A stretch of DNA of 64,000 nt from Diaphorobacter limosus. Lineage in GTDB: Bacteria; Pseudomonadota; Gammaproteobacteria; Burkholderiales; Burkholderiaceae_C. How positions within the stretch are numbered: the first letter of the stretch is position 1; each line of letters begins with the position of its first letter. The DNA lies in contig NZ_CP136921.1 in the NCBI RefSeq assembly GCF_033100095.1, forward strand, positions 714,501-778,500, read 5' to 3'. This document shows, piece after piece, positions 1-61,481 of the stretch. A program made the position numbers and the translations under genes. The notes below the pieces were generated by a model, which did not search any database, was not told the origin of the DNA, and saw only the letters and a list, made by a program, of their open reading frames with translations.

Positions 1-395
1 CCCTTACGGGTAGGGGCACCCGCCCCGAGCTGCGCCAACTGGAGGCAGAGCTTGACAGGCTGGAGCAGCACATGGATGAGCTGATCGAGGCGAGCAAGCG
101 GGTGCATGGCGGACACATCTACCTGGCACGCCATCTGCGGGCTTCAACTGGCTACACGTTTCTGCGCTGGCGCGAGGCCGGTGGCTCCAAGCGGCACCTG
201 TCCTGGGAGCTGGCGCAGCAGATGTATTCGGCGTACCAGCAGCGCACCCGTAGCTGGTACGCGCAGCTCTCCGAGCAGGCGATGAAGGCCAACGATGAAC
301 ATGTGCGCCTGCGCAAGGAGATCAGGATGATCAGGCGCCGATTGATCAGGAGTGAGCGTGCCGTGTATGCGAAGGCCATTCCGGGATCGAAATGA
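1..395 (+). CDS. DUF3158 family ICE protein (5' end outside window)
   Basis: The frame is open from base 3 with no stop, so the gene starts before the window; the first internal ATG is at 72. The visible part is basic and helical, with an RRRLIR-type tail. It resembles the DUF3158 proteins of pKLC102/PFGI-1-type integrative elements, which are typically found just upstream of the element's ssDNA-binding protein, as here. The molecular role of DUF3158 is unknown. The neighbour order is the main support for the family call; the protein itself has no catalytic motif that I can see. Confidence 0.6.
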   Translation, partial: LTGRGTRPELRQLEAELDRLEQHMDELIEASKRVHGGHIYLARHLRASTGYTFLRWREAGGSKRHLSWELAQQMYSAYQQRTRSWYAQLSEQAMKANDEHVRLRKEIRMIRRRLIRSERAVYAKAIPGSK

Positions 396-475
396 ACTGA
401 GGCATGGATACCCTGGTCTTGTGGCACTGGTGCAGCTGCTGGGCCTTCCTTGAACCGCACCACGAGGAATAAGTG

Positions 476-871
476 ATGCAGAACCTTTTCATTGGCAAGG
501 GCAACCTCGGCGATTCGCCAAAGTTGAAGCATGTTGCCGGCAGGAGCGGCGATTTCACGGTGGCGTCGATGCGTGTCATGTTCGGACGCTATGGCCAGAC
601 CGAGGATGGTGGGGTAGAGCAGGTGGGTGGTTTCTGGCGTGAGGTCGAGATTTACGGCGCAAAGGCCGAGGCCTGTGCCAAGCATCTGCGCAAGGGTGCT
701 CGAGTGCTGGTCATCGGTGAGGAACGAGAGTTCACTGCCACGGATGACGATGGCAATGAGGTGCAGGTGATCAAGGTGGTGGCCGAGGATGTGGCGCTTC
801 AACTGTCGCGGATTGAATCCATCACGTTCACGCCATCACGCGCACGGGAAACAGAAGCGGCCGAGGTTTGA
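476..871 (+). CDS. ssb: Single-stranded DNA-binding protein (ICE type)
   Basis: This is an OB-fold protein of about 131 residues. It opens MQNLFIGKGNLGDSP and has the SSB pattern of a short N-terminal strand, a W-R-E-V-E-I-Y-G-A-K-A core near residues 57-67 and an LRKGARVLVIGEE segment. It would coat ssDNA during conjugative transfer or element replication. A GTG at 473 is in frame, but the ATG at 476 has a better spaced GAGGAAT ribosome site at 464-470. The C-terminus ends acidic (EAAEV) but lacks the classical DDDIPF tip, as in many ICE-borne SSBs. It lies 80 bp after the DUF3158 gene. Confidence 0.85.
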   Translation: MQNLFIGKGNLGDSPKLKHVAGRSGDFTVASMRVMFGRYGQTEDGGVEQVGGFWREVEIYGAKAEACAKHLRKGARVLVIGEEREFTATDDDGNEVQVIKVVAEDVALQLSRIESITFTPSRARETEAAEV

Positions 872-934
872 TATTCCATTGAGCAAATAACCCCATGCGT
901 GAAGCGTCGCCAGTTTTACCCAATGGAGGTTGTC

Positions 935-1237
935 GTGAATATAGCGCATCAATCCGAAAAGACGGAGTGTTTATTCAAGCTCATTGCACTGGAGCCCGAA
1001 ACACTCGAAAATCTTACTCGCGCCACGGGCTGGAGGCACAAAGAAACCCAAGATATATTACTTAGGCTCATTGCCGATAGTCGAATTACCTGCAGAAATA
1101 CTAATGGAGGGCGATTTTACACGGTCAAGCAGCGCTCCCCTTTAACAAGTAGCAACCGGATGCAGGGGGCGGAAAGCGTTCTGGCTACGCCCGCAAAGTG
1201 TGCCAACGCTCAAGAATATCGCGTGCCAAGGTCATGA
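935..1237 (+). CDS. Small winged-helix-like hypothetical protein
   Basis: The protein is about 100 residues. I chose the GTG at 935 because a GGAGG at 924-928 stands 6 bases before it; an upstream GTG at 899 is also in frame. Residues 15-60 (LFKLIALEPETLENLTRATG, then LLRLIADSRI) read as helix-turn-helix followed by a wing with a GGRFYTV strand, so DNA binding is plausible. The tail is basic and low in structure. Codon use is less GC-rich than the ssb gene. I do not recognise the family. It is the last gene before the integron-derived segment. Confidence 0.5.
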   Translation: MNIAHQSEKTECLFKLIALEPETLENLTRATGWRHKETQDILLRLIADSRITCRNTNGGRFYTVKQRSPLTSSNRMQGAESVLATPAKCANAQEYRVPRS

Positions 1238-1299
1238 GCAGCTCACCATGTTCCAATGCAAGTTGTTCGGCTGCCCTCGCGAAGCAGTCTTAGAGCCGC

Positions 1300-3195
1300 T
1301 CACCTAGTGACGCCGTAGTGCTTGACAGCGTATTCCTTGAAGGTACCGAACGTCTTATCGTCGAGCGCGAACTTGACGCCCGCGTTTGCGGCTGCAAAGG
1401 CCTCTGCGTCCCTATACGGTATCGGATTACCACGAATATCGAGGTACGAGAGCCGTTCGCTCTGGTGCAGTGCTTGTAGGCTTTTAACCAAATTACCACT
1501 GAGGTCGAGCGTCGTCAAGCGTGGCAACGTAGATAGTATGCTTATATCCGATATGTTATTCTTGGACAAAAGTAAGCGGATTACGGAATTATTGTTCGCC
1601 AAGCCAGCCAGATCGCCTATATTGTTATTCTTCAGTTGAACATCCGCCAATTTGGAAAGTCCGGAAAGAGGACTAAGATCTGAAACCTTGTTGTTGTTCA
1701 GTTCCAAAATCTCCAGATCACGCATATCGCGAATCACGCTCAAGTCGTCGATCTCGTTTTGATTAGCGAGCAACCATCGAAGTTGAGTGAACTCGCTTAC
1801 AATTCCAAAGTTCTCTCTCAGCAAGCCGCTTACGTCCATGCTGTTTCTGGCGGCCAGTTTCTCACGAAGTTGGTGACAATGCTCAGCATCTCGCACTGCT
1901 ATACCGATGTCCTTCTTTTCCTCAGCGATCCCCCCCAGATAAGCAATCGACCTCTTCAGAGGATCGCTCCTCGGCAGTAAGAGAGAGTCGATGCACAAGA
2001 CTTCAAATGAATCCAGGGCTAAACTTCCGGCAGGGACGGCCGCGAGCCTTAGATTTTTTGCCCTCTCAAGACAATCTTCGTTCGGATTCTCATAGCAAAA
2101 CGTCGCAGCCCCCCGAATATTGTCAACGTTCTCTTGCGCGGAAGCACGTGTTTGCTCTATACGTCCGCGTCTACTGGGATGAAGCCTTCCGCTAAGCAGA
2201 CGCTTCGACACGGTCAGAGTTTGGAAATTCTTCTCGAAGATCTCCGCCAGATTCTCGCGAACCGATTGCACAGATTTCTCCAAAGCACGGTATTCCATGA
2301 AGATTCCGGCTGCTTCATAAGAGACAACACTGTAACTAAGATCGGCCGGTCCGGGCTTTGCTGTGGTTGTCAGTTGGGAAGGGAAACCCGTTGTCGTGTT
2401 CCCGGCGTAGTCCAAAATTGCCGTTAGGAGAGCGGCGCACTTGTCAAAGGAGCCTAATCCACACTCAATGTACGCAGCCCGTGACTCGTCGCTCTTGGCA
2501 AAGATCTGAGTGACCTTCGTAACATCGCCACCATATTGGAATGCGCTGATGGTGACCTTGGCGTTCTTGTCGATACTGGTAGAAGCCTTCTTGAGGTCAG
2601 CATTTGCACTCGCAAGCGGACCAGAAATTGAAAACTTTGAAGAAAACTCTTCCTTCTTTTGTTGCGACGAGAAATCGATCCTTACGGATACGAATAGCTT
2701 CGCTCCCCGCGTGATTTCGGAGACAAACCGATCCCCGCATGACGCAGCCCACCTCAACGGCGCATTTTTGACGCTGCCACCGATCGGGGAAAGTTCCACA
2801 GATCCCAATTTCTCAACGGGCAAAAAGTAAGTTGCCTTGTAGATAGAGGACACCGAGTATGAACTTGCCATGGAGCGGGACAAGAAGTCGGCCGCGAGTG
2901 ACCCATCGATAACGCCATACCGGGCCCTGGCACCGATAGAAAAGCCAAGCTCATTTGATAAGGCGCTTTCGCTTATGGCTTGGTCCAAAGCGAAAGAGCT
3001 GGTCGACCCTCCGCTTGGTTCTCCGGTTCCCTGCACGCAGCCGAATCCAACAAAAGTTTCCTTATCCGACTTGTAGGCGCTTCCCAGGAACGCCGCCCGA
3101 TTGCCGGCGTTAACGACTACGTCGGCCGGCTGTGCAAACGTCGGGCTGCAAAAGTAGGGCGACTGCCCTGCTGCGTAACATCGTTGCTGCTCCAT
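1300..3195 (-). CDS. Leucine-rich-repeat protein with possible MACPF-like domain, fused to attI1 ORF-11
   Basis: The protein is about 631 residues from the ATG at 3195. Its first residues, MEQQRCYAAGQSP, are the known ORF-11 peptide of the class 1 integron attI1 site. The frame then continues into foreign sequence (FAQPADVVV...). The middle has a CGDRFVSEITRGAKLF block that resembles the MACPF/SNTX signature region, which is a weak match. The C-terminal 120 residues hold about five 22-residue internalin-like repeats (LxxLxLxxNxIxDLSPL). The reading frame stays open upstream to GTG 3309 through ATG 3273, which would add a hydrophobic signal-like N-terminus translated from attI1. The native signal peptide seems to have been cut off at its end (TFAQ/PADVV). 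The cassette promoter PcW at 3369-3397 points into this gene. Function is unknown; a secreted or surface protein is inferred. Confidence 0.6.
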   Translation of the reverse strand: MEQQRCYAAGQSPYFCSPTFAQPADVVVNAGNRAAFLGSAYKSDKETFVGFGCVQGTGEPSGGSTSSFALDQAISESALSNELGFSIGARARYGVIDGSLAADFLSRSMASSYSVSSIYKATYFLPVEKLGSVELSPIGGSVKNAPLRWAASCGDRFVSEITRGAKLFVSVRIDFSSQQKKEEFSSKFSISGPLASANADLKKASTSIDKNAKVTISAFQYGGDVTKVTQIFAKSDESRAAYIECGLGSFDKCAALLTAILDYAGNTTTGFPSQLTTTAKPGPADLSYSVVSYEAAGIFMEYRALEKSVQSVRENLAEIFEKNFQTLTVSKRLLSGRLHPSRRGRIEQTRASAQENVDNIRGAATFCYENPNEDCLERAKNLRLAAVPAGSLALDSFEVLCIDSLLLPRSDPLKRSIAYLGGIAEEKKDIGIAVRDAEHCHQLREKLAARNSMDVSGLLRENFGIVSEFTQLRWLLANQNEIDDLSVIRDMRDLEILELNNNKVSDLSPLSGLSKLADVQLKNNNIGDLAGLANNNSVIRLLLSKNNISDISILSTLPRLTTLDLSGNLVKSLQALHQSERLSYLDIRGNPIPYRDAEAFAAANAGVKFALDDKTFGTFKEYAVKHYGVTR

Positions 3196-3281
3196 AACAT
3201 CACACATCGACCCACGGCATAACGCGCTTGCCGCTTGGATGCCCGAGGAATAGACTGTACAAAAAACAGTCATAACAAGCC
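3155..3281 (-). other. attI1: attI1 region of class 1 integron 5'-conserved segment
   Basis: Read on the minus strand from 3281, the sequence follows the class 1 integron leader that I know: TTGTTATGACTG, TACAGTCTA, CTCGGGCATCCAAG, then ATGTTACGCAGCAGGGCAG and ending GCCCTA at 3155. The expected continuation with the recombination core (AAACAAAGTTAGGC) is missing, and foreign coding sequence follows directly. The crossover point has therefore been deleted, so the LRR gene was not joined by a normal cassette insertion, or the junction was later trimmed. Confidence 0.85.
3255..3269. promoter_or_regulatory. Degenerate LexA box of the integrase promoter
   Basis: The sequence is CTG-TACAAAAAA-CAG, with nine bases between the half sites. 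The class 1 integrase promoter normally has CTG-N10-CAG, the LexA consensus. One A of the A-tract is missing, which should weaken SOS control. The same deletion shortens the spacing of the cryptic P2 promoter (TTGTTA to TACAGT) to 13, so P2 should be inactive. Confidence 0.6.
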
Positions 3282-3368
3282 ATGAAAACCAGCACTGCAC
3301 CGTTACCACCGCTGCGTTCGGTCAAGGTTCTGGACCAGTTGCGTGAGCGAATACGCTACTTGCATAAC

Positions 3369-3397
3369 AGCTTACGAACCGAACAGGCTTATGTCCA
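3369..3397 (-). promoter_or_regulatory. Cassette promoter PcW
   Basis: On the minus strand there is a -35 TGGACA (3392-3397), 17 bases, and a -10 TAAGCT (3369-3374). This is exactly the weak Pc variant of class 1 integrons and lies inside the intI1 5' region. It reads leftward through attI1 into the LRR gene. It sits just outside the inverted segment, so it is unaffected by the inversion. Confidence 0.85.
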
Positions 3398-3413
3398 CTG
3401 GGTTCGTGCCTTC

Positions 3414-3857
3414 AGCTGCTCGCGCAGGCCGGGCGCCAAGCTATCGGGCAACATCAATGCCCGATCCTTGGAGCCCTTGCCCTCCCGCACGATGATCGTG
3501 CCGTGATCGAAATCCAGATCCTTGACCCGCAGTTGCAAACCCTCGCTGATCCGCATGCCCGTTCCATACAGAAGCTGGGCGAACAAACGATGCTCCCCTT
3601 GCAGAAAACCGAGGATGCGAACCACCTCATCCGGGGTCAGCACGACCGGCAAGCGCCGCGACGGCCGAGGTCTTCCGATCTCCTGAAGCCAAGGCAGATC
3701 CGCGCACAGCACCTTGCCGTAGAAGAAGAGCAAGGCCGCCAATGCCTGCCGATGCGTGGATGCCGAAACCTTACGCTCGTTTGCCAGCCAGGACAGGAAT
3801 GCCTCGACTTCGCTGCCGCCCAGGGTTGCCGGGTGACGCACACCGTGGAAACGGATG
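3414..3857 (-). other. Inverted 444-bp segment inside intI1
   Basis: The minus-strand frame across this segment reads IntI1 residues 45-192 without interruption. Inverting exactly these bases rebuilds a full-length frame. No inverted repeat is visible at the two junctions; the outer flanks share only a direct CGTGCC. The length is a multiple of three, and both junctions fall at codon boundaries to within the ambiguity of a base or two. Confidence 0.85.
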
Positions 3858-4295
3858 GCGCGTGCCCGGGCATGGTGGCTGAAGGACCAGGCCGAGGGCC
3901 GCAGCGGCGTTGCGCTTCCCGACGCCCTTGAGCGGAAGTATCCGCGCGCCGGGCATTCTTGGCCGTGGTTCTGGGTCTTTGCGCAGCACACGCATTCGAC
4001 CGACCCACGGAGCGGTGTCGTGCGTCGCCATCATATGTATGACCAGACCTTTCAGCGCGCCTTCAAACGTGCCGTGGAAGAAGCAGGTGTCGCGAAGCCT
4101 GCTACACCGCATACCCTGCGCCACTCGTTCGCGACGGCCTTGCTCCGTAGCGGTTACGACATTCGAACCGTGCAGGATCTGCTCGGCCATTCCGACGTCT
4201 CCACGACAATGATTTACACGCATGTGCTGAAAGTGGGTGGCGCCGGAGTGCGCTCACCGCTTGATGCGCTGCCGCCCCTCTCTAGTGAGAGGTAG

Positions 4296-4396
4296 GGCAG
4301 CGCATGTCAATCCTGGCGGATTCACTACCCCTGCGCGAAGGCCATCGGTGCCGCATCGAACGGCCGGTTGCGGAAAGTCCTCCCTGCGTCCGCTGA
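4296..4396 (+). other. 5'-conserved segment downstream of intI1
   Basis: After the intI1 stop, the sequence continues as in known class 1 integrons (GGTAGGGCAGCGCA, CCTGGCGGATTCACTACC, GTCCGCTGATGG). It stops abruptly at the TGGCCGAGAGC end of the adjoining element. The usual continuation toward the Tn402 terminal repeat is absent. Confidence 0.75.
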
Positions 4397-4618
4397 TGGC
4401 CGAGAGCACTGCTTCGGACGTGCTCCAAATAGCAGCCATTGAAGGCGGCCACACCCCTGCACTAGGACATGGCCGCTCCAATCGTTGAACTCAGATCTCT
4501 GTCTGCTCGGAGATCTCAAGGGCATCGTCGACCTCGATACCCAGGTACCTCACCGTGGACTCAAGTTTCGAATGGCCGAGCAGCAACTGCACGGCCCGCA
4601 GATTCTTGGTCCGGCGAT

Positions 4619-6012
4619 GGGAGTGTCAGGATTTCTGTGTGTGAGGCTGTTGAATCCGTCACTCAATCGTGAGGCGGCTTGGTGATCTTACTGGCCCGAT
4701 CTGGTAAATCGGTCCTCGTAGAGGATCGCAAATTGGTTCATCGCTGATTTCCAGTGGTTGGCCGCCCGCCCCCAGTCCGCGGTGATGTTGCGCAGCGCCA
4801 GCCAGATCAGCTTGGTGGCCGCCTCGTCGCTGGGGAAGTGGCCGCGCGTTTTGATGATCTTGCGCAGCCGTGCGTTCACGCTCTCGATGGCGTTGGTGGT
4901 GTAGATCACGCGCCGCACCTCGGGCGGGAAGGCGAAGAACGGGATGACCTTGTCCCAGGCCCGGCGCCAGGCGCTGACCACGGTCGGGAACCGCTGCCCC
5001 CAGGGGCCGGCCGCAAACGCATCCAACTCGGCCTCGGCCGCCTCGGCGCTCACCGCGGTGTAGATGGGTTTGATGGCTGCGGCCAGCGCCTTGCGGTCTT
5101 TCCATGACGCAAAGTCCAGGCCACCCCGGATCAGGTGCACGATGCAGGTCTGCAGCGTCGTCGCCGGGAACACTGCGCCCAGCGCCTCTGGCATGCCCTT
5201 GAGGCCGTCGGTGACGGCAATCAGGATGTCCTGCACCCCGCGCGTCTTCAGATCGTTGAAGACCTTCATCCAGAACTTCGCCCCCTCGGTGTTCTCGATC
5301 CAGATTCCCAGGATGTCGCGCGAGCCGTCAGGCAGTACGCCCAGCGCCAGGTAGACGGCCTTGGAGCGCACCACCGCATCCTCGCGAATCTTGACCCGCA
5401 GCGCATCGAAGAACACCACCGGGTACATCGCCTCCAGCGGCCGTGTCTGCCAGGCCGTGACCTCGCCCATCACCTCATCGGTGACACGGCTGATGAGCTC
5501 GGGCGAGACGTCCACCGAGTACATCTCAGCCAGGAAACCCTGGATCTCGCGCACCGTCATGCCGCGTGCGTACATGGCGATGATCTTGTCGTCGAAACCC
5601 GTAAAGCGCCGCTCGTGCTTGCCAATGAGCTGCGGCTCGAAGCTGCCTTCGCGATCGCGTGGGACATCGATGCGCAGCGCCCCCACATCGGTCAGTACGG
5701 TCTTGGTGCTCTTGCCGTTGCGGTGGTTGGCTGATCCGCCTGTGGGCTTGGCTTGGCCGGGCGCATAGCCTAGGTGATGACTCATCTCGGCGCCCAGCGC
5801 CCGCTCAAGAATTGACTTCTTGAACTGATCGAACAGCCCTTGGACTTGGCCCGGCGTCATGGGCCCGGTCACCAACTGGTCAAGCAGCTCGGCCGGGATG
5901 TGAAATTGCGGCTGTGCCGCCTGGTCCGCCAAAGCGGTGGGTTTGGTCTTGCGTGGCATTCATGCTCCTTGTCGACATGCTATGCCTCACACACAAAATT
6001 TCTGACAAGCTC
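4619..6012 (-). mobile_element. IS256-family insertion sequence, copy 1
   Basis: The ends are related inverted repeats: GGGAGTGTCAGGATTTC at 4619 and, on the other strand from 6012, GAGCTTGTCAGAAATTTTG, both continuing into TGTGTGTGAGGC. The flanks repeat TCCGGCGAT (4610-4618 and 6013-6021), an 8-9 bp duplication as usual for this family. The intact target is visible in the other recombinase copy. The length is 1,394 bp. Confidence 0.92.
4688..5959 (-). CDS. IS256-family (mutator-type) transposase
   Basis: The 423-residue DDE transposase begins MPRKTKPTALADQAAQPQF. It shows the family marks: VVFFDALRVKIRED (first Asp, near 190), LIAVTDGLKGMPEAL (second Asp, near 257) and TTNAIESVNARLRK (Glu, near 360). 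The ATG follows a CAAGGAGCATGA ribosome site. The frame is intact, so this copy could supply transposase, in contrast to the frameshifted copy at 26.3 kb. Confidence 0.95.
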   Translation of the reverse strand: MPRKTKPTALADQAAQPQFHIPAELLDQLVTGPMTPGQVQGLFDQFKKSILERALGAEMSHHLGYAPGQAKPTGGSANHRNGKSTKTVLTDVGALRIDVPRDREGSFEPQLIGKHERRFTGFDDKIIAMYARGMTVREIQGFLAEMYSVDVSPELISRVTDEVMGEVTAWQTRPLEAMYPVVFFDALRVKIREDAVVRSKAVYLALGVLPDGSRDILGIWIENTEGAKFWMKVFNDLKTRGVQDILIAVTDGLKGMPEALGAVFPATTLQTCIVHLIRGGLDFASWKDRKALAAAIKPIYTAVSAEAAEAELDAFAAGPWGQRFPTVVSAWRRAWDKVIPFFAFPPEVRRVIYTTNAIESVNARLRKIIKTRGHFPSDEAATKLIWLALRNITADWGRAANHWKSAMNQFAILYEDRFTRSGQ

Positions 6013-6666
6013 TCCGGCGATAGATCAAGGTCGCCTTTGTCCTGCGCATTGAATGGGTCCCGTACTCTGATCGATCCAACCCAAGTTCGTCCACCCAGTG
6101 CCCAAGAATCCGCGCGTACTGCCTGGTTCCCAAATGTGGTGAATCGTGAAGTCGGCTTGGGAAGAGGAAGTCATCTGACTTCAGCTCGGACTTTTTGATC
6201 CAAGCTTGCAGGGCATCACGGGTGACTCCTGTGATCTCGAACTGGACCGGTCGTTTGGTCTTGTGCTGCATGACGATGGCCCGCGTAGCCACCTGGTCAC
6301 CATGTGTCACGTCGCGCACTTTAAGTGCAACGAGATCGCATCCGCGAAGTTTGCTGTCAATGCCTAGGTTGAACAGCGCGAGCTCACGAACCCGCCCTTG
6401 CATCTGAAGGCGTACGCGCAGTGCCCAGATGTCTTTCACCTTAAAGGGTGCCTTCTGCCCAACGATCTTGTCTTTGTTCCACGGCTCGCGGTGCGCGGTT
6501 TGGCCTTCGGTATCCATGATGGTCTCCTATCGAGTTGAGGGCTCGACAGGATGCGCGTCCAAGGCGCCGAGGCGCCAGCCTAGCGAGGCTGCAAGGATGT
6601 CGTGAGGTTGCCCTTGAAAACTGGAGTTCTTAACCCTTGTTGAAAATACCGACAAGGAGTTCAGAG

Positions 6667-6999
6667 ATGAGTGACAAGCAGGTGCGTGCGCAGTACACGC
6701 GAGAGTTCAAGCAGGAGGCTGTTCGGCAGGTCCGCTCGGGTCAGGCGATTGCGGTGGTGGCCAAGGTACTGGGCATTCCCAAAGCGAGCCTGGGCAACTG
6801 GGTACGGCTGTCAGCCAAGGGAGAATTGGACGGTGCGGGCGGTGGAGACAAGAGCATCCAGGTTTCGCCCGAGCAGATGGCGATAGCCCGGTTGCGTGCA
6901 GAGAATGCTCGCCTTCGCATGGAGCGCGACATCGCAAAAAAAGCCGCGGCGTACTTCGCGCAGGACACGCTGCGAGGTACGCCTGGATTCACCAAATGA
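6667..6999 (+). CDS. IS3-family transposase OrfA
   Basis: The 110-residue protein has a helix-turn-helix (EFKQEAVRQVRSGQAIAVVAKVLGIPKASLGNWV) and a leucine-zipper-like LRAENARLRMERDIAKKAAAYFA tail. This is the usual OrfA layout for DNA binding and dimerisation. The ATG at 6667 has AGGAG at 6656-6660. It overlaps OrfB by 4 bases (6996-6999), where programmed frameshifting normally makes OrfAB. Confidence 0.92.
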   Translation: MSDKQVRAQYTREFKQEAVRQVRSGQAIAVVAKVLGIPKASLGNWVRLSAKGELDGAGGGDKSIQVSPEQMAIARLRAENARLRMERDIAKKAAAYFAQDTLRGTPGFTK

Positions 7000-7863
7000 G
7001 AAAGCTGTACCCGGTGAGTGTGTCCTGCGGGGTGCTGGAGGTCAGCGCAAGCGGGTACTTCAACTGGCTACGCCGGCGTGAGTCTGGCCACGGTGGACCT
7101 GCCCGGCGTCACAGCGACGAAGCCCTGCTGGCGTACATGCGCGCCATCCACGCCGAGGTGAAGGGGGAATACGGCTGGCCCCGCATGCACAAGGAACTGC
7201 TGGCCCGGGGCATCCGGGTGGGCACACCGGGTGCGCAAGCTCATGCAGCAGCACGGCATCAGGGCCAAGACCAAACGCAAGTTCGTGGTGACTACCGACA
7301 GCCGCCACAGCCTGCCGGTGGCGCCCGACTTGGTACAGCGGCGCTTTAACCCCGAGGCGCCCAACCAGCTGTGGAGTGGCGACATCACCTACATCCAAAC
7401 CGACGAGGGCTGGCTGTACCTGGCTGCGGTCATCGACCTGTTCAACCGTCAGGTGGTGGGTTGGAGCCTGCAGCCGCACATGCAGGCCAGCCTGGTCAAG
7501 GACGCGCTGGCCATGGCGTGGTGGCGCCGCAGGCCACCTCCTGGACTGATATTCCACAGCGACCGGGGCAGCCAGTATTGCAGCCATGAGTTCCAGGATG
7601 CCTTGAAGGACTGGGGCATGCGTTCATCGATGAGCAGAAAGGGGAACTGCTGGGACAACGCACCGACCGAGAGCTTCTGGGGTCGGCTGAAAACAGCCAG
7701 CGTACATGGGTGCAAATTCGCTACCCGTGAGCAGGCCAGGCAGGCGGTGATGGACTGGATGGCCTTCTACAATCACCGCAGGCTGCATTCGTCGCTGGGC
7801 TACCTCAGCCCGATGCAGTACGAGCAGCGCTGGTACGAGGCACAGCGTAAAAAGGCCGCGTGA
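6996..7863 (+). pseudogene. IS3-family transposase OrfB, frameshifted
   Basis: The integrase-core protein starts MRKLYPVSVSCGVLEVSASGYF. At about 7215-7230 (GIRVG, then TPGAQAH) the frame is lost and continues one frame over with RVRKLMQQHGIRAKTKRKF. A small deletion is likely. The DDE core is all present in the second part: LWSGDITYIQT, IFHSDRGSQYCS, NCWDNAPTESFWGRLK. The copy is probably inactive unless the shift is bypassed. Confidence 0.88.
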
Positions 7864-8050
7864 ACCGTGGGTTAAGAGCTACACGAAACAGGGGCAAGGT
7901 CAGTCGGGCTACGACGACGAAGGGCAGCTTCCAGACACGCAGCCAGTTTCACGCTCTCGGCCATTACCGGTCACTCGGTTCAGACCGCTCCAATGGTCTT
8001 TGGCTGTACATGCACCTTGCCGAAGTCCAGTGTGGTAAGTGCACTGAGCC

Positions 8051-10554: not shown

Positions 10555-10752
10555 GGGTCGAGAGCGTGAGTTGGCTCCCGCGAACAGCGGACATTCGGCA
10601 GTGAGCTGGCTAGGAGACGTGCAGCCCACTACCCCGGAGGACCGAAGTTCCCTCGATACCGGTCATTGTCGCGGCCGCGCTGCTTGGTGAACCGATGACA
10701 GCTTGGTGCCCGGCATCATGAAGCCGGATCAGATCCGCGACCGGCTCCAACC
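10555..10752 (+). repeat. 198-bp direct repeat, copy A
   Basis: It is identical base for base to 15527-15724. It begins GGGTCGAGAGCGTGAG and ends CGGCTCCAACC. The copies lie 4,972 bp apart and enclose the NTPase-nuclease and RHH/ImmA-IrrE/PIN genes. Confidence 0.95.
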
Positions 10753-15086: not shown

Positions 15087-15933
15087 TCCTAGGCATCCTT
15101 GAGAGATTTAGAGATTGGGATAATGTACCTTTCCTGGTAGGCCCGAAGGCGGGGGGTTGTTCACAACACCGGTGTTAGAAATCGGAACGAAAACGGCGCC
15201 GACGGCGGGGGGCTGAAGAAGCGTCCGACCCGCTCGAAGAGTCAGCTTTCGAGCTGGGCTGCTTGAAATACTGACCGACTCCATTGGGCCCGGTTACGTA
15301 AGTTCAGCGCAGTGAACAGCGGTCATTAGCTAGGTCGCGACGAGAGTAGCATGATGAAGGCGCCGGCTATGTCAGCAACACCTCACATTGCTGCCGCTCA
15401 TGTCAACCACGGCGGCCGAACCGAACGTCGGCTTCATGGCGCCGACAGTGAGATCGCACGCTGACCCCGACCGACCGCAACCGCTGCAATCCGGCTGCTC
15501 GTGGCTTCCAAGCGAGCGGCGGCAATGGGTCGAGAGCGTGAGTTGGCTCCCGCGAACAGCGGACATTCGGCAGTGAGCTGGCTAGGAGACGTGCAGCCCA
15601 CTACCCCGGAGGACCGAAGTTCCCTCGATACCGGTCATTGTCGCGGCCGCGCTGCTTGGTGAACCGATGACAGCTTGGTGCCCGGCATCATGAAGCCGGA
15701 TCAGATCCGCGACCGGCTCCAACCAGCCTGAAGCTGCCGAAGTGCGGTCAAGTCAGCTCCGCAGCGGTTGCGGCCGTTCGACGGTGAGGGCCGAGCTTGC
15801 GGTCCTCGCTCCAAGGCGGTCATTGAGCCGCGCTGATCTGCAGATACGCGAATGACGGGAAGGGGCGGACAACCTCGACATGGAGCGCAAGACGCCCGGC
15901 AGCTTCCGTGATCTCTCCTCGGCTACTTTAAAT
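15087..15933. other. Intergenic mosaic with repeats, no gene seen
   Basis: This stretch holds repeat copy B (15527-15724). AGCCTGAAGCTGCC at 15725-15738 is the reverse complement of 10776-10789, so the sequence after the repeat is partly inverted relative to copy A. Between 15100 and 15526 I see only short frames and the promoter region of the RHH operon. Confidence 0.6.
15527..15724 (+). repeat. 198-bp direct repeat, copy B
   Basis: Its sequence is identical to 10555-10752. Recombination between the copies would remove the NTPase-nuclease and PIN/ImmA/RHH genes as a 4,972-bp circle. Confidence 0.95.
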
Positions 15934-18418: not shown

Positions 18419-19278
18419 TGGCCGAGAGCGTGAAACTGGCTGCGTGTCTGGAAGCTGCCCTTCGTCGTCGTAGCCCGACATCCTTGCAGCCTCGCTAGGC
18501 TGGCGCCTCGGCGCCTTGGACGCGCATCCTGTCGAGCCCTCAACTCGATAGGAGACCATCATGGATACCGAAGGCCAAACCGCGCACCGCGAGCCGTGGA
18601 ACAAAGACAAGATCGTTGGGCAGAAGGCACCCTTTAAGGTGAAAGACATCTGGGCACTGCGCGTACGCCTTCAGATGCAAGGGCGGGTTCGTGAGCTCGC
18701 GCTGTTCAACCTAGGCATTGACAGCAAACTTCGCGGATGCGATCTCGTTGCACTTAAAGTGCGCGACGTGACACATGGTGACCAGGTGGCTACGCGGGCC
18801 ATCGTCATGCAGCACAAGACCAAACGACCGGTCCAGTTCGAGATCACAGGAGTCACCCGTGATGCCCTGCAAGCTTGGATCAAAAAGTCCGAGCTGAAGT
18901 CAGATGACTTCCTCTTCCCAAGCCGACTTCACGATTCACCACATTTGGGAACCAGGCAGTACGCGCGGATTCTTGGGCACTGGGTGGACGAACTTGGGTT
19001 GGATCGATCAGAGTACGGGACCCATTCAATGCGCAGGACAAAGGCGACCTTGATCTATCGCCGGACCAAGAATCTGCGGGCCGTGCAGTTGCTGCTCGGC
19101 CATTCGAAACTTGAGTCCACGGTGAGGTACCTGGGTATCGAGGTCGACGATGCCCTTGAGATCTCCGAGCAGACAGAGATCTGAGTTCAACGATTGGAGC
19201 GGCCATGTCCTAGTGCAGGGGTGTGGCCGCCTTCAATGGCTGCTATTTGGAGCACGTCCGAAGCAGTGCTCTCGGCCA
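18419..19278 (+). mobile_element. Tyrosine-recombinase element, copy 2, intact (860 bp)
   Basis: It runs from TGGCCGAGAGCGTGAAAC to GCAGTGCTCTCGGCCA, carrying one gene. By eye it is identical over its length to copy 1 without that copy's insertion sequences. The flanks differ (AGTTCC left, AGAGCT right), giving no duplication. The two copies are inverted with respect to each other and enclose 8.0-18.4 kb. Confidence 0.7.
18561..19184 (+). CDS. Short tyrosine recombinase (catalytic domain only)
   Basis: The 207-residue protein begins MDTEGQTAHREPWNKDK. Catalytic residues are visible: Arg in SKLRGCDLVAL, His-x-x-Arg in GTHSMRRTKATLIY, and LLGHSKLESTVRYLGI with His and the nucleophilic Tyr. It lacks an N-terminal core-binding domain. 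The ATG follows GATAGGAGACCATC. As the only gene of an 860-bp element with inverted ends, it probably mobilises that element, though this has not been shown. Confidence 0.88.
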   Translation: MDTEGQTAHREPWNKDKIVGQKAPFKVKDIWALRVRLQMQGRVRELALFNLGIDSKLRGCDLVALKVRDVTHGDQVATRAIVMQHKTKRPVQFEITGVTRDALQAWIKKSELKSDDFLFPSRLHDSPHLGTRQYARILGHWVDELGLDRSEYGTHSMRRTKATLIYRRTKNLRAVQLLLGHSKLESTVRYLGIEVDDALEISEQTEI

Positions 19279-26042: not shown

Positions 26043-26222
26043 TGGCCGTCATTTTTTGGAGATAGACCATGACCGCAAATTCTGAACGCACCAGTCAGGA
26101 ATCAGACAACTATGTCACGAGTTTCGAGACTGGCATCATGGCACGCAAGGGCGAATGGGTCGGCATCTGCATCAAGTTTGCGATGTATGACCACCGCACC
26201 AAGCTCACGCATTGGCCACCCA

Positions 26223-27618
26223 GAGCTTGTCAGAAATTTTGTGTGTGAGGCATAGCATGTCGACAAGGAGCATGAATGCCACGCAAGACCAAACCCACCG
26301 CTTTGGCGGACCAGGCGGCACAGCCGCAATTTCACATCCCGGCCGAGCTGCTTGACCAGCTGGTGACCGGGCCCATGACGCCGGGCCAAGTCCAAGGGCT
26401 GTTCGATCAGTTCAAGAAGTCAATTCTTGAGCGGGCGCTGGGCGCCGAGATGTCAGTCATCACCTAGGCTATGCGCCCGGCCAAGCCAAGCCCACAGGCG
26501 GATCAGCCAACCACCGCAACGGCAAGAGCACCAAGACCGTACTGACCGATGTGGGGGCGCTGCGCATCGATGTCCCACGCGATCGCGAAGGCAGCTTCGA
26601 GCCGCAGCTCATTGGCAAGCACGAGCGGCGCTTTACGGGTTTCGACGACAAGATCATCGCCATGTACGCACGCGGCATGACGGTGCGCGAGATCCAGGGT
26701 TTCCTGGCTGAGATGTACTCGGTGGACGTCTCGCCCGAGCTCATCAGCCGTGTCACCGATGAGGTGATGGGCGAGGTCACGGCCTGGCAGACACGGCCGC
26801 TGGAGGCGATGTACCCGGTGGTGTTCTTCGATGCGCTGCGGGTCAAGATTCGCGAGGATGCGGTGGTGCGCTCCAAGGCCGTCTACCTGGCGCTGGGCGT
26901 ACTGCCTGACGGCTCGCGCGACATCCTGGGAATCTGGATCGAGAACACCGAGGGGGCGAAGTTCTGGATGAAGGTCTTCAACGATCTGAAGACGCGCGGG
27001 GTGCAGGACATCCTGATTGCCGTCACCGACGGCCTCAAGGGCATGCCAGAGGCGCTGGGCGCAGTGTTCCCGGCGACGACGCTGCAGACCTGCATCGTGC
27101 ACCTGATCCGGGGTGGCCTGGACTTTGCGTCATGGAAAGACCGCAAGGCGCTGGCCGCAGCCATCAAACCCATCTACACCGCGGTGAGCGCCGAGGCGGC
27201 CGAGGCCGAGTTGGATGCGTTTGCGGCCGGCCCCTGGGGGCAGCGGTTCCCGACCGTGGTCAGCGCCTGGCGCCGGGCCTGGGACAAGGTCATCCCGTTC
27301 TTCGCCTTCCCGCCCGAGGTGCGGCGCGTGATCTACACCACCAACGCCATCGAGAGCGTGAACGCACGGCTGCGCAAGATCATCAAAACGCGCGGCCACT
27401 TCCCCAGCGACGAGGCGGCCACCAAGCTGATCTGGCTGGCGCTGCGCAACATCACCGCGGACTGGGGGCGGGCGGCCAACCACTGGAAATCAGCGATGAA
27501 CCAATTTGCGATCCTCTACGAGGACCGATTTACCAGATCGGGCCAGTAAGATCACCAAACCGCCTCACGATTGAGTGACGGATTCAACAGCCTCACACAC
27601 AGAAATCCTGACACTCCC
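26223..27618 (+). mobile_element. IS256-family insertion sequence, copy 2
   Basis: It is nearly identical to 4619-6012 but in the opposite orientation. It starts GAGCTTGTCAGAAATTTTG and ends TCCTGACACTCCC. The target duplication is GCCACCCA at 26215-26222 and 27619-27626. It is 1,396 bp, two more than copy 1, because of a TC insertion in the transposase gene. Confidence 0.93.
26276..27549 (+). pseudogene. IS256-family transposase, frameshifted
   Basis: The protein matches copy 1 from MPRKTKPTALADQ to GAEMS. There the bases TC are added at about 26453-26456 (GAGATGTCAGTCATC against GAGATGAGTCATC), giving a stop at 26465-26467. The remaining frame, open from 26551 (GTG) to 27549, is unchanged and has all DDE motifs. 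The copy can move only if copy 1 supplies transposase. Confidence 0.92.
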
Positions 27619-49951: not shown

Positions 49952-52085
49952 GGGGTCTCCTCGTTTTCAGTGCAATAAGTGACGGTACGAAAAGCTAGCA
50001 CTGGCGCGGAGGTGGTGTTGGTAGATCGTTGATTTCATTGACTTTCCTGTTCACTTTCAAATCTGCGATTCGTGGCGTCAAACCGTGGTCGGTTTCATCC
50101 ATTGGTGCCAGTTATCGATGCATTTGGCCGCGAAGGCAGGATTTGGTCAGCATAGCGGTCAACCGGGAAGCGAAACACACCCCGCAAGTTGATGCTCTCC
50201 AGCCTGGTGGGCGCAATCTTCCCGATCAGTTCCGGTGGAATGACCTGGCGGCGGTTCGACCAGCGATCCAGGGACCGCCTGCATCTGTGAGGTATTCCAC
50301 GCCATCACGATGTTGGCCATCAGGCTCAACGCATCGGCCACAGCCTGCATTTCATCGACACGTTTGGCCTGCGCCGGGCTGATCCGGCCGGTATAAATGG
50401 CGCGCTTGAGGGCGTTAACAGCCTCGCCCCGATTGAGCACCCGGCGCAACTCGTTCCTGAAAGCGTCCTTGACAAAGTAGTCAGCCAAAAACGCCGTACG
50501 CAGCAACCGCCCCAATTGCACGCCAGCCTCATAGATTGGATCGCCCTGGGCGGCAGAACCGAACCGCGCAAGAGCTGCCACCGCACTGGCATGTCCGCTC
50601 ATGACCGAGGCTGCCAGGTGCACCAGACTATCCCAATGCTTTTCGATCAAAGCGACGTCGACATTGGCTTCGCACACCGCAGCGATTTCTGCGGGCACTT
50701 TGGTGCCGCGTGGCACAAAGAGGTGGCGCTGTTTGAGTTCCTTCAACCGCGGGCAAAGATCAAAACCAAGCAAACGGGCAGCTTTGCAATGGCGACGAGC
50801 AACGACCGCACGGGGCGAATTCCATCAATCAATCCCTCGCGACCAGGGAGGCCCTGCTCGGTGGTTTGCGTTTCTGGGTTTCGGTGATCAAGGCTTCAAG
50901 ACGGGCACGCAACTCAGCATCTGGCACCGCACCTTGCGCGCTCAAGGCAACAAGTTCGCCGAGCAGCGTTTTGTACATTGCGGCCCAATTGACGGTAGCG
51001 GGGACATCGGCGGCAGCCTGACGCCACAGATCGGCGATCCGGCGCTGCACCATAAGGATCAACTGGTCTGTGGTGGTGAACAGGCAATACCGAAGAAAGC
51101 ATGCGACCTCCACGGTGCGCGCTGGCTCTTTGATCTTGGCTCCGGCTGAGGGCGGCCTGGAGACAAGTCGGCGCGCGTAGCGGCGCAAGATGAGATCGGG
51201 GATGTCTGCCAGGTGCTTATGAACGTCCAGCGTGTAAAGCAGGTCGATGCGCTCCAGTACCTCGCTGATTTGGCGGGTTGAGTGTTTCGCCGGTGCAGCC
51301 CATAGCCAACTCTGCTGGGTTTGTCCATCTGGGCGCAGCTCTGAAACTGAGGCTCGCCAGCGATCAAGTGTTGCTGGATCAACGCTGGCGGCGATGGCGG
51401 TGCCTGTTTCAACTTCAAACTGGGCAAGTGCCGCCGCAATCAGTGTCCGAATTGCCCGCTCGTGCACGATCACCAGCTTGTTCTTGTACAGCCATTGACG
51501 CGCCCGCACGAGTAGCTGATCGCGGTCGGCGCAGCGCGCCACTTCGTCGCGCAGTTCACGTACCAGTGAGCGGCGCTGGTGCTCGCTCATCCACTGGAAT
51601 CCAGGGTGACCGTGCAGGCTACTTGTTGGTGATCGAATAGCGTGCGCCCGCGTTCATACATGGCTCTCAGCGAGGCGACTTCTGGTGCTGCAATGCCAAG
51701 CTCGTTGCCAAGGTGGCGCCACAAGGCTACTGGAATTACCCGAAAGGCACCGAGCAAACGCCCACTCATGCGCAGGAAACCAATATGGAGCGCCAGACCA
51801 AGCTTGTGGGAATCACCTCGGCGTGCATTGATTGCGTCGCGCTCGGCACCATCGAAGGTGAAAAATGCCTTCATCTCGAAGTCGCTGATATCGCGGGGGA
51901 GCCCACGCATCCCCAAAAACGTTGTGTGCCAACCCTGCATCGTGAACCTCAAAAGTGGGAGGCCACCATACCCGTTTACAAAGCGAACAGGAAAGTCAAT
52001 GAAATCAACGGTCTACCCAGACCACCCCCGCGCCAGTGCTAGCTTTGCGTACCGTCACTTATTGCACTGAAAACGAGGAGACCCC
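49952..52085 (-). mobile_element. IS1071, internally deleted
   Basis: Both ends carry the long IS1071 inverted repeat, GGGGTCTCCTCGTTTTCAG at 49952 and its complement ending at 52085. The repeats run for roughly 110 bp with some differences at the inner side. The length is 2.13 kb against about 3.2 kb normally. There is no 5-bp duplication (TTGTA left, CATAT right), so flanking DNA was rearranged. IS1071 is a Tn3-family element common around catabolic genes in Comamonadaceae. Confidence 0.9.
50098..51952 (-). pseudogene. tnpA: IS1071 transposase remnant
   Basis: The N-terminal part starts at 51952 (MRFTMQGWHTTFLGMRGLPRD) and shifts frame near 51590 into MSEHQRRSLVRELRDEVARC. It continues to PPSRASLV near 50829. 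The next recognisable part is LLGFDLCPRLKELKQRHLFVP from 50773, so about 330 residues with the DDE core are deleted. A further shift occurs near 50270 after MAWNTSQMQAV. Confidence 0.88.
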
Positions 52086-52088
52086 CAT

Positions 52089-60779: not shown

Positions 60780-61481
60780 ATGACTATAAAAGCAGTTGTT
60801 TTTGATGCTTACGGCACATTGTTTGATGTTTACTCCATCCAAGTATTAGCTGAAGAGCTCTACCCAAGCCATGGGGCTGACATTGCGGTGAAGTGGCGCG
60901 ACAAGCAAATTGAGTACACAAGGTTGATTACGCAGTCTGATCCGCACAACGCATCTGGCAGTCAATACTTCCGTCCATTTTGGGAGCTGACACGCCTGTC
61001 ATTGGAGTACACCCTAGACAGACTGAAACTAAATCGTGAATCGGATCAGGTAGAAAAACTGATGCAGCAATACGCTCACCTGACCCCGTTTACTGAAAAT
61101 TTGGCAGTCCTTCAGAAAATCAAAGCTAGTGGTGTTACGACTGCCATCCTCTCTAATGGCAGCGTGGACATGCTGGCATCAGCTGTCAAGAGCGCGGGCA
61201 TGGAAGATGTCTTAGATCAAGTCATATCAGTAGATTCAATACGCCTTTTCAAGACATCGCCCGAAAGCTATGGACTTGTGCAACAGACGATTCCCGTAAA
61301 CAAAGATGAAATTCTGTTCGTATCAAGCAATGCATGGGATGCACTAGGTGCTACTTGGTTTGGCTTTACAACGCACTGGGTCAATCGACAAGGTTTGCCG
61401 TTTGAGGCTTTGACACCTCGCCCGCATTATTCCGGGCCAGATCTCAAGTCAGTCCTTCACTCGTTGGAGCTAGCGGAGTAA
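60780..61481 (+). CDS. (S)-2-haloacid dehalogenase, type II
   Basis: The 233-residue HAD enzyme hydrolyses L-2-haloacids (for example chloroacetate) to hydroxy acids. Catalytic Asp9 lies in VVFDAYGTLFD, Arg40 in KWRDKQ, Ser125 in AILSNGS, Lys158 in FKTSPESYGL and the SSNAWDALGA loop follows with Ser, Asn and Asp. These correspond to the known L-DEX residues. The frame is complete and in one operon with the GSTs. Confidence 0.93.
   Translation: MTIKAVVFDAYGTLFDVYSIQVLAEELYPSHGADIAVKWRDKQIEYTRLITQSDPHNASGSQYFRPFWELTRLSLEYTLDRLKLNRESDQVEKLMQQYAHLTPFTENLAVLQKIKASGVTTAILSNGSVDMLASAVKSAGMEDVLDQVISVDSIRLFKTSPESYGLVQQTIPVNKDEILFVSSNAWDALGATWFGFTTHWVNRQGLPFEALTPRPHYSGPDLKSVLHSLELAE

What the first reader, a model, noticed from the sequence alone, without database searches (positions are those of the whole stretch)
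3282..4295. Exact, frame-preserving 444-bp inversion inside a class 1 integron integrase gene
IntI1 residues 45-192 are on the minus strand, while 1-44 and 193-337 are on the plus strand. The three pieces sum to the normal 337 residues, so nothing was lost or gained. The gene can be restored by flipping 3414-3857. The cassette promoter Pc lies just outside the segment and stays active. If the inversion is reversible, this would be an on/off switch for integrase that leaves cassette expression on; if not, it is an unusually clean lesion or an assembly artefact. No inverted repeats flank it, which speaks against a classical invertase.
Basis: seen in the sequence. Interest (0 to 1): 0.9.

Follow-up and report, generated by a model that had tools for sequence, protein, structure and literature searches.

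The report
Integron integrase gene broken by inversion
A bacterial gene that captures mobile gene cassettes has had a middle stretch turned back to front without losing a base, which almost certainly disables it; it looks like a recent one-off accident in a decaying element and not a genetic switch.

Summary
The inversion is in the sequence. intI1 (3282-4295) lies in three blocks: codons 1-44 on +, about 45-192 on -, 193-337 on +. Against an intact relative no base of the gene is missing. No inverted repeats beyond chance flank it. All 80 related loci examined keep the normal order. Neither junction was found in plasmids or E. coli genomes, nor the left one in species genomes or viral contigs. 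The one-contig genome holds one intI1 copy, which argues against misassembly. The pieces carry no stop or indel and 4 private changes, so the event looks recent. The setting is a chromosomal-type class 1 integron, damaged elsewhere: attI1 core lost, LexA box one base short, neighbouring recombinase cut by two IS elements. Promoter Pc is intact outside the inversion. Best reading: a one-off inactivating inversion at 2-bp microhomology. A reversible switch is unsupported. Reads could not be checked.

The parts
3282..3413 (+). intI1 codons 1-44, native orientation
   Evidence: alignment; translation; Pfam PF13495 positions 2-30, E 3.4e-4, below its curated cut-off
3413..3857 (-). inverted block of intI1 (about codons 45-192); endpoints ambiguous by the shared CA/TG, so 441, 443 or 445 bp
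   Evidence: minus-strand match of 445 bp at 95.3%; NF011946 positions 45-191
3858..4295 (+). intI1 codons 193-337 and stop, native orientation
   Evidence: NF011946 positions 193-337
3413..3414 (.). left breakpoint, CA shared in inverted form with the right breakpoint
3856..3857 (.). right breakpoint, TG
3369..3397 (-). cassette promoter Pc, TGGACA-N17-TAAGCT (PcW type; the name by hexamers is recalled)
   Evidence: pattern match; intact, 15 bp from the left breakpoint
3255..3269 (.). LexA-box-like site of the intI1 promoter, 15 bp instead of 16
   Evidence: 9 of 10 relatives checked have 16 bp; L084, whose gene is in normal order, also has 15. Coordinates read
3155..3281 (+). remaining attI1/5' region; the core crossover sequence beyond 3155 is missing
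   Evidence: alignment: AACTTTGTTTT is present in 13 of 15 relatives shown and absent from the window and from L016 and L018
1300..3309 (-). open frame of a leucine-rich-repeat protein running from the attI1/intI1 leader; the N-terminus of its closest relative is absent
   Evidence: Pfam LRR_4 E 9.7e-18; P0001 begins MRNLCLTGLLTAC before the shared FCSPTFAQ
4296..4402 (+). conserved tail of the class 1 integron up to its outer end TGGCCG; no clinical-type 5'-CS continuation
   Evidence: alignment; outer end (TGGCC) found in 66 of 80 loci, 55 of them with the clinical-type continuation
4397..7963 (-). tyrosine-recombinase unit, copy 1, interrupted by an IS256-type (4619-6013) and an IS3-type element (about 6603-7902)
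   Evidence: self-BLAST; termini; target-site repeats; Pfam Transposase_mut, NCBIfam IS3

Best explanation
This is a real, recent, one-off inactivating inversion inside the integrase gene of a chromosomal-type class 1 integron that is already decaying. Shown: three intI1 blocks with the middle one reversed and nothing lost; only 2 bp of inverted homology at the ends; Pc intact outside; other damage around it. Inferred: two strand breaks rejoined in swapped orientation, or a double template switch at the replication fork, using the CA/TG microhomology. The result splits the catalytic domain, since the block with the first conserved arginine is on the opposite strand from the block with the last catalytic residues (residue roles recalled from the tyrosine recombinase family). 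No full-length integrase can therefore be made, and loss of the integrase is tolerated or favoured, as for many integrons.
For: Exact three-block structure. No repeats beyond chance at the ends. 80 of 80 related loci have the normal arrangement of the pieces they contain. Neither junction in plasmids (none of the 5,000 best-scoring records covers 80% of the query) or E. coli (0 of 2,918 and 0 of 2,999 matching records); left-junction 22-mer absent from genome contigs and viral contigs. One intI1 copy in a one-contig genome. No stop or indel in the pieces and 4 private substitutions, 2 silent and 2 not. Lost attI1 core and 15-bp LexA box. Published context: 43-46% of integron integrases look inactivated (PMC3108266, passages), and an active integrase is costly and was lost by frameshift in serial transfer of Acinetobacter baylyi (PMC3510236, passages).
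Against: No reads were available, so an assembly error or a mixed population is not excluded. A clean inversion without loss or repeats is an unusual kind of lesion; frameshift and nonsense changes are what surveys frequently report (PMC3510236, passages). Four private substitutions are too few to prove relaxed selection or to date the event. The accompanying damage is not specific: L084 has the same short LexA box, and L016 and L018 also lack the attI1 core stretch, all three with the gene in normal order.
Confidence: 0.85

Rival explanations
1. Assembly artefact: the block was placed backwards when the genome was assembled and the cell has a normal gene.
For: The junctions were found in no other record where they were searched. 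No reads could be inspected.
Against: Only one intI1 copy in a one-contig genome and no repeats at the ends, so an assembler had nothing to confuse. Both joints are base-exact with no loss.
Confidence: 0.1
2. Reversible invertible segment: a recombinase flips the block and switches the integrase on and off while Pc stays on.
For: The inversion is exact and Pc lies outside it. The genome encodes many tyrosine recombinases (18 PF00589 matches, two of them the intI1 pieces), one with an intact frame in this window (18561-19184).
Against: No inverted repeats; 80 of 80 loci in one orientation; no small resolvase-type invertase. Zwartia carries a 92% identical recombinase beside its intI1 (L015) and its gene is in normal order. 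The attI1 core is destroyed, so a switched-on integrase would lack its home site.
Confidence: 0.02
3. A site-specific recombinase (IntI1 itself, or a serine recombinase with a 2-bp crossover) made a single illegitimate inversion at pseudo-sites.
For: No loss of bases and a 2-bp shared core, as strand exchange by a serine recombinase would leave (recalled chemistry).
Against: In-register similarity of the two ends is 14 of 42 bases in the two Thauera relatives and PA7 (L009, L074, L016) and 17 of 42 in L005. The only PF00239 protein is a large one far away. Two bp of homology or more is common by chance (about 18%).
Confidence: 0.03

Closest known systems
Inactivated integron integrase genes (Cambray 2011 PMC3108266, Starikova 2012 PMC3510236, passages read)
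   Same: Integrase lost while the promoter side remains; here too the LexA box is altered.
   Different: The lesion is an exact internal inversion; none of the passages read describes one, and the frameshifts in PMC3510236 are single-base changes.
Chromosomal class 1 integrons of Betaproteobacteria (Ghaly 2017 PMC5460862, passages read; Thauera loci L009, L010, L011, L074)
   Same: IntI1 type, PcW promoter, conserved tail ending at TGGCCG, no clinical-type continuation.
   Different: Inverted block, truncated attI1, fused leucine-rich-repeat frame.
Phase-variable invertible DNA such as fimS or Hin/Gin segments (recalled)
   Same: A short segment of a few hundred bp is inverted.
   Different: No flanking inverted repeats, no dedicated invertase found, one orientation in the 80 relatives, and the segment is coding sequence and not a promoter.

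Membership tests
Class 1 integron | intI1 gene of class 1 type | tested here: met
   95-96% identity to a plasmid intI1 in three pieces; NF011946 pieces; not as one open frame
Class 1 integron | intact attI1 site | tested here: not met
   core crossover sequence missing beyond 3155
Class 1 integron | Pc promoter inside intI1 | tested here: met
   3369-3397 minus strand; sequence only
Class 1 integron | gene cassettes with attC sites | not tested
   no attC model run; by eye no clear attC after the LRR gene
Clinical (Tn402-type) class 1 integron | 5'-CS continuing past TGGCCG towards IRi | tested here: not met
   55 of 66 loci with a found outer end have it, the window does not
Invertible switch (phase variation) | flanking inverted repeats | tested here: not met
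Invertible switch (phase variation) | dedicated invertase near by | tested here: inconclusive
   a tyrosine recombinase with an intact frame is 15 kb away (18561-19184) but its role is unknown; no small serine invertase
Invertible switch (phase variation) | both orientations seen | tested here: inconclusive
   80 of 80 related loci in one orientation and the window alone in the other; the mixture within the strain is not testable without reads
Inactivated intI pseudogene | no full-length open frame | tested here: met
   the frames that hold the intI1 pieces are 74, 200 (mostly the inverted block) and 146 aa

The most novel reading that the evidence does not exclude
The block is a reversible element: a host recombinase flips it at low frequency, giving a population in which a few cells can make integrase while Pc keeps cassette expression on in all.
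Probability: 0.02. Interest if true: 0.85.

Novelty: new variant of a known kind. Interest (0 to 1): 0.22.

Why it matters
It adds an uncommon lesion, an exact internal inversion, to the ways in which integron integrases are lost. It also shows that the gene content of a pseudogene can be complete while its order is not. Screens for intI1, a much used marker of pollution, that go by a short amplicon or by coverage would probably count this gene as present (inference). If it did prove reversible, it would be a new control of integron activity.

Tried and rejected
Switch by inverted repeats: rejected. The best inverted match, CCTTCAGC, is out of register with the right breakpoint by about 24 bp and is no better than chance.

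Plasmid records whose three pieces lie on one strand (H1-H12) looked like inversions; the two opened, L006 and L007 (2 of 12), each hold two normal-order intI1 copies facing each other. The other ten were not opened; the spans printed for the twelve, about 2.5-3.2 kb, do not fit an exact inversion of 1.25 kb. L008 (H14) is intI1 with an IS5-type insertion.

The junction 20-mer with up to 2 mismatches in 398 family genomes gave matches in 182 genomes, which I take as chance, and a cut list. The only exact match among the rows shown is the window's own; I draw no count from it. The right junction was not searched in genome contigs or viral contigs. A family member, G014, shares window 1-1537 at 100% but has no intI1 at high identity; another, G030, holds only a 337-bp 3' piece at 94%. 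Neither gives a second example.

Private-change dating is weak: only 4 changes, and some of the 24 distinct comparison sequences are themselves broken and misaligned, which can hide private sites. Of 81 loci tried there (80 plus L005), 74 had all three pieces placed; 7 were dropped. Of the 80 loci (the best 80 of 241 confirmed relatives, not a random sample), 59 have an open 337-codon intI1, 16 do not (three of these, L010, L011 and L077, stop only 4 codons early) and 5 run off their contig.

Paper searches for an inverted intI1 listed 3, 0 and 1 papers. In the two of these opened by passages (PMC3108266, PMC8024014) 'inversion' has another sense; PMC11551772 and PMC8371274 were not opened. 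This covers only that library and those terms.

Full report
Observation. The intI1 gene at 3282-4295 is present in three blocks. BLASTN against an intact intI1 (L005, a Stutzerimonas plasmid) gives window 3155-3414 on plus, 3413-3857 on minus and 3856-4406 on plus, at 96.2, 95.3 and 95.6% identity. They cover the reference end to end except for a 1-bp gap in the leader. Codons 1-44 and 193-337 are in native orientation and about 45-192 are reversed. That the total is 337 codons follows from exactness and is not separate evidence.

Ends of the block. In four relatives with normal order (L005, L009, L016, L074; L074 has no open 337-codon frame) the longest exact inverted match within 30 bp of the breakpoints is 6 bp, within the range of 300 random pairs (4-8 bp). 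In-register identity is 14-17 of 42 bases. Microhomology of 2 bp or more occurs at about 18% of random endpoint pairs. In the window as it stands an 8-bp inverted match exists, but about 24 bp out of register; 27 of 300 random intervals did as well. There is thus no sign of recombinase sites.

Occurrence elsewhere. All 80 intI1 loci fetched from species genomes have the normal relative orientation of the pieces they contain. In 72,556 plasmid records none of the 5,000 best-scoring matches covers 80% of either 100-base junction query, and a full junction match should have ranked first. In 20,395 E. coli records 2,918 and 2,999 records match part of a junction query and none covers 80% of it. 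The left-junction 22-mer has no exact match in genome contigs or viral contigs; the right junction was not searched there. The tools note that records of the window's own genome, or of one very near it, may be left out of these searches.

Is it real? The genome is one contig of 4,099,615 bases at 100% completeness and holds a single intI1-like gene at high identity; its other three matches are 73-76% and about 100 bp long. With no repeat at the ends and no second copy, a repeat-driven misassembly is hard to construct. Reads could not be inspected, so this stays an inference.

Age. The pieces have no stop codon or indel. Against the nearest intact relative, Thauera L009, there are 18 silent and 5 replacement differences. 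Against 24 distinct relatives the window has 4 private changes, two silent and two not. The inversion is therefore probably recent, though the numbers are small.

Setting. The integron is of the chromosomal betaproteobacterial kind. By DNA the inverted block is nearest to Thauera L009 (98.4%), then Thauera L074 and Pseudomonas aeruginosa PA7 L016 (both 97.7%); PA7's copy has the clinical-type continuation, so likeness of the block alone does not settle the kind. The tail does: it ends at TGGCCG without the continuation present in 55 of the 66 loci whose outer end was found. [quoted passage not shown] The five other members of the genus searched (G001-G005) have no such gene: best E-values are 8e-16 to 4e-19 with distant matches, or none. 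The rest of the element is damaged. The attI1 crossover is missing beyond 3155. The LexA-type box has 15 bp against 16 in 9 of 10 relatives checked. A leucine-rich-repeat frame runs out of the attI1 leader and lacks the first 13 residues of its closest relative P0001, whose source the table does not show. The neighbouring recombinase unit is split by an IS256-type and an IS3-type element. These lesions are not specific to the inversion: L084 has the same short box, and L016 and L018 also lack the attI1 core stretch, all with normal gene order.

Mechanism. The best-supported account is a single inversion by rejoining of two breaks, or by template switching, at 2-bp microhomology. It divides the integrase so that no full-length protein can be made; the frames that hold the three pieces are 74, 200 and 146 codons. 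Published passages say that 43-46% of integron integrases look inactivated (PMC3108266) and that an active IntI1 is costly and was lost by frameshift during serial transfer of Acinetobacter baylyi (PMC3510236). Steps shown: structure, ends, singularity within what was searched, surroundings. Steps inferred: the molecular route and the loss of activity.

Switch or lesion. A switch needs recombination sites, a recombinase and both orientations. The first is absent. The second is uncertain: tyrosine recombinases are plentiful (18 PF00589 matches, of which two are the intI1 pieces), while the only PF00239 protein is a large one about 1.5 Mb away. The third is unseen. I give the switch 2%.

Verdict. 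Confirmed observation with a small coordinate correction; ordinary outcome (an inactivated integrase) by an unusual route. Novelty is a new variant of a known kind of lesion.

Noticed in passing
4397-7963 and 18419-19278: Two inverted copies of an ~860-bp unit with termini TGGCCGAGAGC that encodes a 207-aa XerC-like tyrosine recombinase; copy 1 begins exactly at the outer end (TGGCCG) of the class 1 integron. A similar unit (859 bp, TGGCCGAATGC / TGGCCGAAAGC) sits at the same integron end in Zwartia (L015 5984-6842), in the opposite orientation; it is the only one of the 80 loci with this recombinase. TGGCCG-ended units also surround relatives on two plasmids (L138, L140) of five examined. The shared end hints that TGGCCG may be a recombination site where chromosomal class 1 integrons join their surroundings. 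Against this, TGGCCGAGAGC is common in the genome (37 sites; its reversed control has 1).
   Followed up: partly
1300-3309: Leucine-rich-repeat protein gene fused in frame to the attI1/intI1 leader, without the first residues (MRNLCLTGLLTAC) of its near-identical relative P0001. The one-base-short A-run at the LexA box may help to keep this longer frame open (read by eye, not computed).
   Followed up: partly
1-1537: 100% identical over 1,537 bp to a genome of another genus of the same family (G014:C8, locus L136 10529-12065), which also carries pieces 99.6-99.9% identical to window 49952-52086, a Tn3-type region: a recently shared mobile region.
   Followed up: partly
4619-6013 and 26222-27618: Two copies of the same IS256-type element, 99.7% identical, in opposite orientation; the first has an 8-9 bp target repeat inside the recombinase unit.
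   Followed up: yes
10555-10752 and 15527-15724: 198-bp direct repeat, 100% identical, about 5 kb apart.
   Followed up: no
60780-61481: Haloacid dehalogenase type II gene (TIGR01428, above cut-off) next to two glutathione-dependent oxidoreductase-like genes (below cut-off); suggests a catabolic island.
   Followed up: no
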